This document shows, in pieces, positions 1,693 to 8,420 of a stretch of DNA of 12,067 nucleotides. How positions within the stretch are numbered: the stretch's first letter is position 1; each line of letters begins with the position of its first letter. The DNA lies in assembly GCA_029978815.1 (NCBI GenBank), contig JAPOIQ010000010.1, positions 1 to 12,067 of the forward strand, given 5' to 3'. Source of the stretch: a bacterium. GTDB lineage: Bacteria > Actinomycetota > Acidimicrobiia > Acidimicrobiales > Ilumatobacteraceae. The notes below the pieces were generated by a model that saw only the letters and a list, made by a program, of their open reading frames with translations, ran no database searches and was not told the DNA's origin. The translations under genes were made by a program, and so were the position numbers.

Positions 1693-3909
1693 GTGGGCAT
1701 TGGTTCGCTGTCAAGTGTTGCTACACCGGTAGCCGTTGGTGTTGGCGTCATCGTTATTGGTGTTTTCCTGCTCATTCGCGAGCGGCGAACAACCTCGTCG
1801 AGCGTCGAGGTTGAACCTCAATCGATGACCACATCGATGACGAAAAGCCAGTCACAGATCAACGAAAGGTCATCGGCGCGAGCGCTGCTTGACGCACTTG
1901 ATGAGGCGCTTCTGCATGTAGATCATTCGGGGATCATCATTGAGGTGAACCGAGCTGGCAGTGATCTGTTGGGCTCTCCGGTGAGTTCGATTGTTGGGTC
2001 CTCGTTCGATATGTGGCTCGATGACGCAGATCGTGGCACCCTTGATCCGTGGATCACACGGCTTCCTTCTGAGGTACACCACGGACACGGCGGACCACAT
2101 TCAGCGGTTGAGGTCTCGGTGACAACGACCGATGGGCGTGTTGTTCCGATCGAGGTCACCGTGCAACGCCCAGACGATACGGGCCCAATTCTTGTGAGGT
2201 TGACCGATCGAGATGAGGTCGCCGGTCAGCGCAGAGCCCTCGACGAGGCTCGCCACCGATTTCATCAGGCTTTTCACTCTGCACCGACTGGAATGGTGCT
2301 CGTTCGTCTTGACGACGGGAGAATTGTCGAAGCGAATGAAGCGCTTGCCACCATTCTTCAGCGTTCACCAGAAGAGCTCGTTGGTCGAACATTGCGAGAA
2401 CTCACACATCCCGAAGACATCCGTTCCTCTCAAACGCATCGTGCGCAACTCGAGTTGGGTGTCATCGATTCGTATCTCGTCGATCAGCGTTATCGGCGGC
2501 GGGATGGCGCATACGTCACCACGAGAACGAGAGTTGCTGTCTCAGAGGACGACGGAATCTTGTTTGCTCTTCATCACATCGAAGATGTCACCGAGGAGCG
2601 TCGTACTGCAGAGCAGTTAACTCATGCGGCGCGCCACGATGAACTCACGGGCCTTGCCAACAGGTCATATTTTCAACAAGTCCTTGAGCAACGATTAACC
2701 GGCTCGCGCCCAGGCCTTGTCGGGTTGTTATTCATCGACCTTGATCACTTCAAGGTGGTGAACGACAGCCTCGGGCACGCTCGCGGCGATGAGTTACTGC
2801 GGCAGGTCGCGAAACGACTCGAAGGGGCTGTTCGCGAAGGAGATCTTCTTGCTCGCTTTGGAGGTGACGAATTCGTCGTCGTCCTCGACGGTCGGGGCGG
2901 GCCAGTTGATGCGGCGACGGCAGCCGAGCGGCTTCGAGCGGCTGTCCATCCGGCGGTGACGGTCGATGGACACGAATTCTTTGTGACGGTAAGTATCGGC
3001 TGGTCGACAAATCACGATGCTGGGATGTCTCCCGATGAGATGTTGAGAGACGCCGACGCAGCGATGTATCGAGCTAAAAGCCGAGGACGCGATTGTGTTG
3101 AGGCGTTCCAAGTTGGCAGCCATCAGTCAGGAATGCAGGCACTTCGAACGGTCGGTGAGCTTCGGCGTGGTGTTGAGCGCAACGAGATTGTGCCGTACTT
3201 CCAGCCAATCGTTGAGTTGCAGAGCGGTCGCATTGTTGGATTCGAGGTTGTCGCTCGTTGGCTACATCCAGACCGCGGGTTGTTACCTCCAAGCGAATTT
3301 CTTCCATTCGCTGAAGAGTCAGGTCTTCTCGTGTCACTCGGTGCTTCGATGATGCGAAACTCGCTATCTCAGATGGCTCGGTGGCGTGCCGCTGGACACG
3401 CGTTTGCGAATGGATCGGTCGCAGTAAATGTTGGTAGCCGCCAACTCGTTGACAACTCGTTTTTGCCGACGGTGGTGGAAATACTTGATGAGACCGGTGT
3501 CGACCCAGATTCGGTGTGGTTTGAGATCACAGAATCGGCGTTGCTCGCAGATGCTCGTGCGGCAACGTCGACACTTCGAGAAATCCGGGGGCTTGGCATA
3601 CATCTCAGTGTCGATGACTTCGGCACCGGCTACTCATCGTTGACCTACCTCAAGCGGTTCCCGGTCGAGGCGATCAAAATCGATCGAAGTTTTGTGAGTG
3701 GTCTTGGAATCGAAGATGAAGACTCAACGATTGTTGAAGCGGTGATTCAACTTGGCAGAGCTTTGGGGCTCACTGTGGTCGCAGAGGGAGTTGAGAGCCC
3801 GTTGCAACTCCAACGGCTACGCGATCTCAATTGTGACCGAGGGCAGGGATATCTCTTTGGTCGCCCTCGGCCAGCGAATCTCATCGAAACCGAGCTCGCA
3901 ACGAACTAG
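1693..3909 (+). CDS. membrane-anchored PAS-PAS-GGDEF-EAL cyclic-di-GMP enzyme
   Basis: A 738-residue signalling protein that probably both makes and breaks down cyclic-di-GMP. One transmembrane helix lies at about 11-28, followed by RERR, which would place the rest in the cytoplasm. Two PAS sensor domains follow (about 62-175 and 186-302; the second is clearer, with NEALATIL and a PEELVGRTL segment). The diguanylate cyclase domain (about 312-470) has an intact GGDEF (390-394) and a product-inhibition I-site RxxD (R381-D384) five residues upstream. The phosphodiesterase domain (about 485-735) has EVVAR (518-522) in place of the EAL core. It keeps the expected metal and catalytic residues in register: E518, N579, E611, D641/D642, K662, E698, Q718. 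Loop 6 reads DDFGTGYSSL. The GTG start is chosen for the helix directly after it and the -10-like hexamer upstream; an ATG at 1691 is in another frame. The sensed signal is unknown. Which activity dominates cannot be read from sequence. Confidence 0.93.
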   Translation: MGIGSLSSVATPVAVGVGVIVIGVFLLIRERRTTSSSVEVEPQSMTTSMTKSQSQINERSSARALLDALDEALLHVDHSGIIIEVNRAGSDLLGSPVSSIVGSSFDMWLDDADRGTLDPWITRLPSEVHHGHGGPHSAVEVSVTTTDGRVVPIEVTVQRPDDTGPILVRLTDRDEVAGQRRALDEARHRFHQAFHSAPTGMVLVRLDDGRIVEANEALATILQRSPEELVGRTLRELTHPEDIRSSQTHRAQLELGVIDSYLVDQRYRRRDGAYVTTRTRVAVSEDDGILFALHHIEDVTEERRTAEQLTHAARHDELTGLANRSYFQQVLEQRLTGSRPGLVGLLFIDLDHFKVVNDSLGHARGDELLRQVAKRLEGAVREGDLLARFGGDEFVVVLDGRGGPVDAATAAERLRAAVHPAVTVDGHEFFVTVSIGWSTNHDAGMSPDEMLRDADAAMYRAKSRGRDCVEAFQVGSHQSGMQALRTVGELRRGVERNEIVPYFQPIVELQSGRIVGFEVVARWLHPDRGLLPPSEFLPFAEESGLLVSLGASMMRNSLSQMARWRAAGHAFANGSVAVNVGSRQLVDNSFLPTVVEILDETGVDPDSVWFEITESALLADARAATSTLREIRGLGIHLSVDDFGTGYSSLTYLKRFPVEAIKIDRSFVSGLGIEDEDSTIVEAVIQLGRALGLTVVAEGVESPLQLQRLRDLNCDRGQGYLFGRPRPANLIETELATN

Positions 3910-6779: not shown

Positions 6780-6788
6780 AAATCCACA
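6780..6788 (+). promoter_or_regulatory. isolated DnaA-box-like site
   Basis: AAATCCACA matches 7 of 9 positions of the DnaA box TTATCCACA. It lies between the rplI stop and the terminator hairpin, outside the phased array that begins at 6867. Alone it would mean little. Confidence 0.25.
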
Positions 6789-6796
6789 CTGTGTAC

Positions 6797-6829
6797 ACAG
6801 CCGGCTCGATCCCGCATCGAGCCGGCTGT
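6797..6829 (+). terminator. strong hairpin ending the rpsF-ssb-rpsR-rplI operon
   Basis: A perfect 14-bp GC-rich stem (ACAGCCGGCTCGAT at 6797-6810 with ATCGAGCCGGCTGT at 6816-6829) closes a CCCGC loop and is followed by the T-rich stretch TGTGTGTTT. It starts 28 bases after the rplI stop. The T run is broken by G, so it may be an imperfect intrinsic terminator, a common form in actinobacteria. It should insulate dnaB from ribosomal-operon transcription. Confidence 0.8.
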
Positions 6830-6866: not shown

Positions 6867-6938
6867 AAATCCACATGTTTTTCCACAACTGAATTCACAT
6901 GGTTTTCCACAGAGTTGTACCCCTTCCTTCCCACAGGC
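6867..6938 (+). promoter_or_regulatory. 12-bp-phased array of DnaA-box-like sequences upstream of dnaB
   Basis: Six consecutive 12-bp slots start at 6867, 6879, 6891, 6903, 6915 and 6927. Their first nine bases are AAATCCACA, TTTTCCACA, GAATTCACA, TTTTCCACA, TTGTACCCC and CTTCCCACA. The two TTTTCCACA copies fit the relaxed DnaA box TTWTNCACA exactly; slots 1, 3 and 6 match TTATCCACA-type boxes at 7 of 9 positions; slot 5 is degenerate. The first two slots and the next two form a 24-bp imperfect tandem repeat (18 of 24 bases alike). All sites point the same way and end 24 bp before the dnaB ATG. A DnaA-bound control region for dnaB is the natural reading; another regulator recognising TCCACA is possible. 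Confidence 0.6.
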
Positions 6939-6962
6939 GAGACGTGAGAGAGTAGAGATCTG

Positions 6963-8420
6963 ATGAGTGAAGACGCGCCATTCCCCCCGCTACCACCCGA
7001 TGAGTACGGCCAAGACTCCGACGGGCCTGAAGCGTCGAGAGGTGGGAGTTCGTCGCGCAGTAACGCTCGAGGAAATCGCCGTCGATCTGGCTCAGTCGGT
7101 CGAGTGCCACCACACAACCTTGAGGCAGAAGAGTCAGTGCTCGGAGCGTTGCTGCTTTCTCGCGAAGCAATCGGCACGGTCTCTGAACTTGGCCTAAATC
7201 CCGACGATTTCTACCGTCCGGCTCACCGCCACATTTACGACGCAGTCCGCTCGCTGTACGCGAGTGCAGGCCCAGTCGATGTAGTGACGGTGGCCGATGA
7301 ACTTCGACGTCATGGACTGCTCGATGAAATCGGTGGATCGGAGAGTCTCCACGAACTGCAGAACATGACCCCAGCAGTTTCAAGTGTTGGCCACTACGCA
7401 AAAATCGTTCAAGACACCGCCCTTCTTCGGCGCCTCATTTTTGTTGCCGGAGATATCGCTGAAATTGCGTATGGAGAGCCTGATGATGTTGCCCAAGCGC
7501 TCGATGCAGCAGAAACGAAAGTGTTTCAGATCGCAGAAGATCGTGTCGCGGACACCACCCGAAGCCTCGATGATCTTCTGCCAGAAATCTTCCAGCAACT
7601 TGAAGACACGTTCCATCGCGGCGACGTCGTCACTGGCGTGCAAACCGGATTCGTCGATCTCGACGAGTTGCTATCTGGGCTACAACCCAACGCCCTGTAC
7701 ATCGTTGGGGCACGACCAGCAATGGGTAAGAGTGCATTTGGGCTCAATATTGCCTCCCATGTCGCAATGAACTCAGGACAACCGGTACTCGTGTTCTCAC
7801 TCGAGATGGGACACACCGAACTGTCGCATCGAATTCTCTCCTCGGAAGCGCGAGTGGATTCAGTGAAAATGCGAAAGGGCAATCTCCAAGACACCGATTG
7901 GACAAAGATCGGAAAGGCGATTGGCCGTCTCGAGGTGCCGATGTTCCTGGATGACAACCCTCGCGTCACCGTCATGGAAATCAGAGCGAAGGCCCGTCGC
8001 ATCAAAGCTCGCTATGGCGGACTTGGGCTCATCGTCATCGACTACATCCAGCTCATGACATCTGGGAACTTCGCAGAAAACCGTCAGCTCGAAGTTTCTG
8101 AGATCAGCAGAAACTTGAAGATCCTTGCACGAGAGCTCGAAGTGCCAATTATTGCGCTCAGTCAGCTAAGCCGTCGGCTTGAAGAACGGTCCGATAAGCG
8201 CCCCATGCTCTCCGACCTTCGCGAATCAGGGTCGCTTGAACAGGACGCAGACGTCGTCATGTTTTTGTATCGCGATGAGGTGTACAACCCTGACACAAAT
8301 GACCGAGCAAGTGCAGAGGTCATTGTGGCGAAACATCGTGCGGGCCCAATCGGCACGAGAAAGCTGGTTTGGCTTGGCCAGTACACGAGGTTCGAAAACG
8401 CTGCTCGCGGTGGCGTCTAA
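6963..8420 (+). CDS. dnaB: replicative DNA helicase DnaB
   Basis: The hexameric 5'-3' helicase that opens the replication fork. Of 485 residues, 1-47 are a Pro/Ser/Arg-rich, probably disordered leader absent from E. coli DnaB. The N-terminal domain follows (about 48-150, from PPHNLEAEESVLGALL), then a linker, then the RecA-like motor with Walker A GARPAMGKS (249-257), the SLEM segment (279-282), Walker B LIVIDYIQLM (356-365), SQLSRRLEER (400-409), the SDLRESGSLEQDADVV region (417-432) and KHRAGPIGT (457-465). No intein interrupts Walker A, although inteins are frequent in actinobacterial dnaB. The ATG at 6963 follows GAGAGTAGAG, a weak Shine-Dalgarno region, and gives a full N-terminal domain. 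A terminator separates it from rplI and the DnaA-box-like array lies directly upstream. Confidence 0.97.
   Translation: MSEDAPFPPLPPDEYGQDSDGPEASRGGSSSRSNARGNRRRSGSVGRVPPHNLEAEESVLGALLLSREAIGTVSELGLNPDDFYRPAHRHIYDAVRSLYASAGPVDVVTVADELRRHGLLDEIGGSESLHELQNMTPAVSSVGHYAKIVQDTALLRRLIFVAGDIAEIAYGEPDDVAQALDAAETKVFQIAEDRVADTTRSLDDLLPEIFQQLEDTFHRGDVVTGVQTGFVDLDELLSGLQPNALYIVGARPAMGKSAFGLNIASHVAMNSGQPVLVFSLEMGHTELSHRILSSEARVDSVKMRKGNLQDTDWTKIGKAIGRLEVPMFLDDNPRVTVMEIRAKARRIKARYGGLGLIVIDYIQLMTSGNFAENRQLEVSEISRNLKILARELEVPIIALSQLSRRLEERSDKRPMLSDLRESGSLEQDADVVMFLYRDEVYNPDTNDRASAEVIVAKHRAGPIGTRKLVWLGQYTRFENAARGGV

What the first reader, a model, noticed from the sequence alone, without database searches (positions are those of the whole stretch)
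6867..6938. Phased array of DnaA-box-like sites directly upstream of dnaB
Six consecutive 12-bp slots share a TCCACA-type core, two of them exactly TTTTCCACA, all in the same orientation, ending 24 bp before the dnaB ATG. A seventh similar site lies at 6780. The exact 12-bp register over 72 bp is unlikely to be chance. DnaA loads DnaB at origins, so DnaA control of dnaB transcription, a DnaA-titration site, or an origin-like element are all conceivable. I do not know of a described array of this form at dnaB.
Basis: partly seen in the sequence, partly recalled or inferred. Interest (0 to 1): 0.72.

Follow-up and report, generated by a model that had tools for sequence, protein, structure and literature searches.

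The report
DnaA-binding array at dnaB promoter
In this actinobacterium and its relatives, a row of evenly spaced sites that look like binding sites of the replication starter protein DnaA sits in front of the gene for the DNA-unwinding helicase DnaB, so the cell probably ties helicase supply to the protein that starts DNA replication.

Summary
The array is real: six 9-bp slots with 3-bp gaps (6867-6935, all on +) end 27 bp before the dnaB ATG. Five have a [CT]CACA core in one 12-bp register; the best of 20,000 shuffles had three.

It is conserved. In 44 non-redundant dnaB upstream regions of the family, cores face dnaB (160 + against 18 -) and recur at 10-12, 20-24 and 31-36 bp. Boxes remain at dnaB in three loci where rplI was not found next to it.

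Similar boxes with 10-13 bp steps lie in the clade's dnaA-dnaN gap, and a 12-bp pair lies upstream of dnaA in 12 of 13 genomes. E. coli DnaA prefers boxes 2-3 bp apart, an 11-12 bp period.

It is probably not an origin: dnaA-dnaN looks like oriC and lies 22-53 kb from dnaB. DnaA binding upstream of dnaB is known in mycobacteria, where I find the same phasing.

Best reading: a DnaA oligomer assembles here and controls dnaB, more likely as activator. New are the ordered array and its conservation; binding and sign of control are untested in this clade.

The parts
6867..6875 (+). Box 1, AAATCCACA; TTGTCCCCA in three of the five closest relatives
6879..6887 (+). Box 2, TTTTCCACA; TTATCCACA or TTGTCCACA in three of the five closest relatives
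6891..6899 (+). Box 3, GAATTCACA; CAATCCACA in three of the five closest relatives
6903..6911 (+). Box 4, TTTTCCACA; invariant in the window and its five closest relatives
6915..6923 (+). Slot 5, TTGTACCCC: degenerate box in register, start of a promoter-proximal element seen across the family
6927..6935 (+). Slot 6, CTTCCCACA(GG), about where a -35 region would lie; the corresponding element in a number of other genera is CTAGCGATNMACAG
6948..6953 (+). -10-like hexamer GAGAGT, 9 bp before the ATG; by eye nAnnnT recurs at this place in relatives, which would give a leader of 0-3 nt (inference)
   Evidence: one search found no sigma-70 consensus promoter
6963..8420 (+). dnaB, replicative DNA helicase, 485 aa
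   Evidence: Pfam DnaB and DnaB_C
6797..6829 (+). Terminator-like hairpin after rplI, so dnaB probably has its own promoter
6780..6788 (+).

Best explanation
The array is a cis-regulatory DnaA-binding site of the dnaB promoter. Several DnaA molecules bind the head-to-tail 9-bp boxes cooperatively, one per 10-12 bp, as they do on direct-repeat boxes at origins. The bound row reaches the core promoter (slots 5-6 near the -35 position, -10-like GAGAGT, nearly leaderless start) and sets dnaB transcription according to active DnaA. Activation is favoured (about 0.55), repression or a two-way response less so (about 0.35). Shown: the array, its conservation, phasing and strand bias, and likeness to boxes at dnaA-dnaN and upstream of dnaA. 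Inferred: that DnaA is the binder in this clade, cooperativity, a transcriptional response, and its sign.
For: Order beyond chance. In 20 family regions fetched one or two per genus: 38 boxes on +, 0 on -, expected 1.8 and 0.6. In 44 non-redundant family regions lags of 10, 11, 12 bp occur 8, 16, 14 times (shuffle means about 0.3), with repeats at 20-24 and 31-36 and 7 in all at 13-19. Of 52 family regions, 50 have two or more + cores and 32 have a pair 10-12 bp apart; 0 of 52 have such a pair on the - strand. In the window and its five closest relatives the array has no gaps; in slots 1-4, 17 of 20 core columns are invariant against 12 of 28 others. Boxes are kept at dnaB where rplI was not found beside it: L022, L127, L133. 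In nine genomes of the genus 10 of 14 TCCACA-N6-TCCACA pairs lie at dnaB, 1 upstream of dnaA, 3 elsewhere; control pattern 4. In the dnaA-dnaN gap, reverse-strand [CT]CACN cores recur at 10, 11, 12, 13 bp 7, 16, 11, 6 times (shuffle means about 0.7), and 12 of 13 dnaA upstream regions have a 12-bp reverse-strand pair. This genome's DnaA C-terminus has the Bac_DnaA_C domain and matches DnaA chains 3pvp and 1j1v (recalled as domain IV on DnaA boxes). E. coli DnaA prefers boxes 2-3 bp apart; T. maritima DnaA pairs best at 2 bp. M. tuberculosis DnaA in vitro and M. smegmatis DnaA in vivo bind upstream of dnaB, and mutant I282T binds less there and under-expresses dnaB; in 24 mycobacterial dnaB upstream regions loose cores recur 30 times at 11 and 29 times at 12 bp (shuffle means 0.5-0.6).
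Against: No binding or expression data for this clade. Of the window's six slots only two match TTWTNCACA exactly and slot 5 lacks the core. Spacing is not strictly 12: other genera use 10, 11 or mixed steps, 20 of 52 regions have no [CT]CACA pair at 10-12 bp, two have a single core, and 3 of 20 family regions have no box by the stricter count. In the rest of the class boxes occur on both strands (37 +, 15 -) and only 11 of 39 regions have two or more on +; outside the class 2 of 40. With the strict core the dnaA-dnaN gap peaks at 13 bp (6) and not at 11-12 (2, 0); the 10-13 peak there needs the relaxed core. A site at the -35 position is also what a repressor would use.
Confidence: 0.8

Rival explanations
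1. A secondary or relict origin of replication: DnaA on the array opens the DNA and loads DnaB beside its own gene.
For: Head-to-tail phased boxes resemble those in the dnaA-dnaN gap.
Against: The dnaA-dnaN gap of this genome and relatives carries a box cluster plus a conserved CTACTATCACTA-like stretch (likeness to DnaA-trios is recalled); dnaN confirmed in this genome. dnaB lies about 22-53 kb from dnaA in nine genomes. In 8 local skew profiles (20-180 kb) the minimum is within 8 kb of dnaA in 4 and at dnaB in none; 4 are indecisive. No such stretch follows the dnaB array (by eye).
Confidence: 0.03
2. A DnaA titration or recharging site (datA- or DARS-like) whose main job is to hold or reload DnaA, with dnaB adjacent by chance.
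For: Several boxes some tens of kb from the likely origin; E. coli DARS sites are also closely spaced box pairs.
Against: In the family nearly all cores face dnaB and the array abuts its start; boxes remain at dnaB where rplI is not adjacent. Titration would not need this.
Confidence: 0.08
3. The sites bind another transcription factor with a TCCACA-like, DNA-phased motif, not DnaA.
For: No binding data in this clade; some slots match a DnaA box poorly; the promoter-proximal element CTAGCGATNMACAG is nearly dnaB-specific (27 of 31 hits in 121 genomes lie at dnaB; 7 control hits) and is not a plain DnaA box.
Against: TTGTCCACA and TTATCCACA occur in the arrays, upstream of dnaA and in some dnaA-dnaN gaps of these genomes, and the period is the one DnaA prefers.
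Confidence: 0.07
4. A tandem duplication or RNA-level feature of the dnaB leader, not a protein-binding array.
For: A weak 12-bp tandem repeat is called at 6870-6911.
Against: Linkers vary while cores and register stay; similar registers with different linkers recur across genera; no Rfam family reaches its threshold in the window.
Confidence: 0.02

Closest known systems
DnaA site upstream of dnaB in Mycobacterium tuberculosis and M. smegmatis (PMC7738170, passages read)
   Same: DnaA site near dnaB in Actinomycetota. In the genus of G297, whose DnaB N-terminus is nearly identical to PDB 2r5u (recalled as the M. tuberculosis protein), dnaB upstream regions show loose head-to-tail cores recurring at 11 and 12 bp (24 regions).
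   Different: Binding was shown there by IDAP-seq and ChIP-seq, not here. In that genus the array lies farther from dnaB (by eye); here it abuts the core promoter. The passages seen do not describe an ordered array at dnaB.
Caulobacter crescentus dnaB as a DnaA regulon member (Hottes 2005, not read; via passages of PMC8203912 and PMC7738170)
   Same: Predicted DnaA boxes upstream of dnaB and DnaA-dependent expression
   Different: Alphaproteobacterium; no ordered array mentioned in the passages seen
E. coli 'double DnaA boxes' (PMC11317965, abstract and passages read)
   Same: Boxes 2 or 3 bp apart, used at promoters, DARS sites and others
   Different: Pairs, not six slots; dnaB is not among the bound regions named in the passages seen
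Direct-repeat box arrays of oriC in E. coli and T. maritima (PMC10316083, abstract and passages read)
   Same: Closely spaced same-direction boxes on which DnaA forms head-to-tail oligomers
   Different: Origin with an unwinding element; none seen here

Membership tests
DnaA-regulated promoter | Cluster of DnaA-type boxes next to the gene's start, beyond chance | tested here: met
DnaA-regulated promoter | Boxes conserved with the gene across relatives | tested here: met
   50 of 52 family regions have two or more + cores; kept in three loci where rplI was not found beside dnaB. Weaker outside the family
DnaA-regulated promoter | Box sequence agrees with the genome's own oriC and dnaA boxes | tested here: met
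   Exact TTTTCCACA is not in this genome's dnaA-dnaN gap but lies upstream of dnaA in close relatives; the window genome's own dnaA upstream is not on its contig
DnaA-regulated promoter | Spacing compatible with cooperative DnaA binding (2-3 bp between boxes) | tested here: met
   3 bp in the window; 10-12 bp steps across the family; preference
DnaA-regulated promoter | DnaA binds, and transcription changes with DnaA | not testable with these tools
   published only for other bacteria
oriC | Lies at the GC-skew minimum | tested here: not met
   none of 8 local profiles has its minimum at dnaB; 4 have it within 8 kb of dnaA, 4 indecisive
oriC | Unwinding element or DnaA-trio-like stretch next to the boxes | tested here: not met
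   seen at dnaA-dnaN, not after the dnaB array; by eye only
datA/DARS-type DnaA reservoir | Changes DnaA-ATP level or initiation timing | not testable with these tools
   needs genetics

The most novel reading that the evidence does not exclude
The dnaB promoter carries the same box register as the dnaA-dnaN origin, so that the ATP-DnaA row that triggers initiation also fires dnaB: helicase synthesis and origin firing share one cooperative threshold, and this design is old in Actinomycetota (Acidimicrobiia and the mycobacterial lineage).
Probability: 0.25. Interest if true: 0.72.

Novelty: new member of a known kind. Interest (0 to 1): 0.52.

Why it matters
It would link the initiator DnaA to the supply of the helicase it recruits, in a clade with little molecular genetics. 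Relatives offer a natural series of promoters with 10, 11 and 12-bp steps for testing how DnaA rows assemble away from origins. It also suggests that the mycobacterial DnaA-dnaB connection rests on an ordered array and may be an old trait of the phylum.

Tried and rejected
Origin reading: rejected by the dnaA-dnaN gap, distance and the decisive skew profiles. RNA element: no Rfam match at gathering threshold. Sigma-70 scan: no promoter match, so the -10 assignment rests on conservation seen by eye. A one-mismatch TTWTNCACA count in the window was uninformative. Pfam on seven ORFs near other box pairs: in G012 a thiolase, a glutamine amidotransferase and one without match; in G019 four without match; not pursued. 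The genome-contig scan reached far beyond the clade; only its listing was read. A first genus alignment mixed orientations and was redone. The first DnaA fragment query used a wrong frame and found nothing; repeated correctly. The strict-core lag count at dnaA-dnaN gave no 11-12 peak; the relaxed core with shuffles did, chosen after seeing the sequences. The loose mycobacterial core was likewise chosen after reading. Family-wide hits of TCCACA-N6-TCCACA were sorted by place only for the genus, because the list is cut and many large genomes have as many control hits. Literature searches; nothing in the listings or passages seen describes a phased array at dnaB. PMC4447404 and PMC6478999 (passages) held nothing on DnaA control of the dnaB helicase gene. 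Dropped rows: one class region with N (G130); second-locus matches L332 and L333 were counted among the 26 and left out of the 24.

Full report
What is there. The window carries rpsF-ssb-rpsR-rplI followed by dnaB. A terminator-like hairpin at 6797-6829 follows rplI, so dnaB at 6963 probably has its own promoter. Between them lie six 9-bp slots with 3-bp gaps, all on the + strand: AAATCCACA, TTTTCCACA, GAATTCACA, TTTTCCACA, TTGTACCCC, CTTCCCACA. Five have a [CT]CACA core in one 12-bp register; the best of 20,000 dinucleotide shuffles of the gap had three. TTTTCCACA occurs four times in the 1.83-Mb, 69.5%-complete assembly, twice here.

Conservation in the family. In the window and its five closest relatives the array is gap-free; in slots 1-4, 17 of 20 core columns are invariant against 12 of 28 other columns. 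dnaB was found in 114 of 121 family genomes; I read the upstream of 52: the 30 loci, which are the nearest matches, 20 fetched one or two per genus, and G012 and G022. 50 of 52 have two or more + cores and 32 have a pair 10-12 bp apart; none has such a pair on the - strand. In 44 non-redundant regions core distances pile up at 10-12, 20-24 and 31-36 bp, with 7 in all at 13-19; cores are 160 on + and 18 on -. So the 12-bp step of the window is one form of a 10-12 bp design. The sequences are related, so shuffles overstate independence; differing linkers across genera argue against simple inherited duplication. rplI was found in 46 of 50 loci tested. Of the four without it, L140 comes from a contig end; the other three still have boxes: L022 (4 cores, 2 pairs), L133 (6 cores, 2 pairs), L127 (4 cores, no 10-12 bp pair).

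Wider sampling. Stricter boxes in 300 bp upstream of dnaB: 20 family regions, 38 on + and 0 on - (expected 1.8, 0.6; 12 of 20 with two or more on +, 3 with none); 39 regions from other families of the class, 37 and 15 (expected 1.7, 1.5; 11 of 39); 40 phylum regions outside the class, 9 and 10 (expected 0.9, 2.0; 2 of 40). The feature is strong in the family, patchy and less one-sided in the class, rare in the phylum sample. One of the two positive phylum genomes, G297, has a DnaB N-terminus nearly identical to PDB 2r5u, recalled as M. tuberculosis DnaB. 24 of 26 genomes of its genus had a dnaB match. In the 24 best loci strict cores recur at 11 bp (10 pairs, shuffle mean 0.1) and loose cores ([CTG][CA]ACA) at 11 and 12 bp (30 and 29 pairs, shuffle means 0.6 and 0.5; 1 each at 9, 10 and 13). 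Mycobacteria are where DnaA binding upstream of dnaB has been measured.

Comparison with other DnaA sites of the clade. dnaA and dnaB are about 22-53 kb apart in the nine relatives where both lie on one contig. The window's own assembly has the dnaA end, a 235-bp gap and dnaN on contig C210; the gap has degenerate boxes and a TTATCCCCAATCCACAGCACCTACTATCACTA stretch like an origin. With the strict core the reverse strand of 14 such gaps shows 1, 2, 0, 6 pairs at 10, 11, 12, 13 bp; with [CT]CACN it shows 7, 16, 11, 6 against shuffle means of about 0.7. Upstream of dnaA 12 of 13 regions have a reverse-strand pair exactly 12 bp apart. Skew minima of 8 local profiles fall within 8 kb of dnaA in 4 (G019, G077, G100, G111) and at dnaB in none; G065, G038, G012 and G026 are indecisive. 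In nine genomes of the genus TCCACA-N6-TCCACA occurs 14 times: 10 at dnaB, 1 upstream of dnaA, 3 elsewhere; the reversed control pattern 4 times. In the window's assembly the array is the only hit, but the control has 2.

Promoter anatomy. Slots 5-6 belong to a promoter-proximal element. Its form in other genera, CTAGCGATNMACAG, hits 31 places in 30 of 121 family genomes; 27 lie at the dnaB start by my comparison, against 7 control hits; the window's genus has another form there. A -10-like nAnnnT hexamer (GAGAGT here) about 9 bp before the ATG recurs by eye. No sigma-70 consensus is found. A weak -35 covered by box-like slots fits a DnaA-dependent promoter, but also occlusion.

Mechanism. E. 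coli DnaA prefers pairs of boxes 2 or 3 bp apart; adding one base pair strongly lowers binding, removing one does not. T. maritima same-direction boxes pair best at 2 bp. The window's 3-bp gaps and the family's 10-12 bp steps fit that arrangement. In M. tuberculosis (in vitro) and M. smegmatis (in vivo) the region upstream of dnaB is one of five main DnaA sites, and mutant I282T binds it less and under-expresses dnaB. A 2021 review says Caulobacter dnaB has predicted boxes and belongs to the DnaA regulon. I therefore favour activation of dnaB by a cooperative DnaA row; binding and sign are untested in this clade.

Novelty. DnaA at dnaB is known. An ordered head-to-tail array at dnaB, recurring in Acidimicrobiia-type genomes and in a mycobacterial genus, was not described in anything my searches listed. 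I file it as a new member of a known kind, with an unusually regular architecture.

Noticed in passing
window 6915-6938 and relatives: A promoter-proximal element (TTGTnCCnCTAGCGATnmACAGG in other genera) is nearly dnaB-specific in the family (27 of 31 hits of its core); what reads it is unknown.
   Followed up: partly
G014, G018, G020, G037, G055 and others: dnaB matches split inside open frames of about 800-900 aa, as expected for inteins; the window's DnaB has none.
   Followed up: no
L222 2675-2727 (G019) and L223 (G038 3025537-3025590): TTGTCCACA and TTATCCACA 44-45 bp apart in two complete genomes, perhaps the same locus; Pfam found nothing for four ORFs near it in G019. Possibly another DnaA site.
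   Followed up: partly
L225 2519-2540 (G012 222519-222540): Inverted TTGTCCACA pair 13 bp apart, about 545 bp before a glutamine amidotransferase ORF.
   Followed up: partly
dnaA upstream regions in relatives: A box with an inverted partner and a further box 12 bp on; the 12-bp pair is in 12 of 13 regions: a likely autoregulatory site.
   Followed up: partly
window 1693-3909: PAS-GGDEF-EAL protein (cyclic-di-GMP enzyme) upstream of the ribosomal operon.
   Followed up: no
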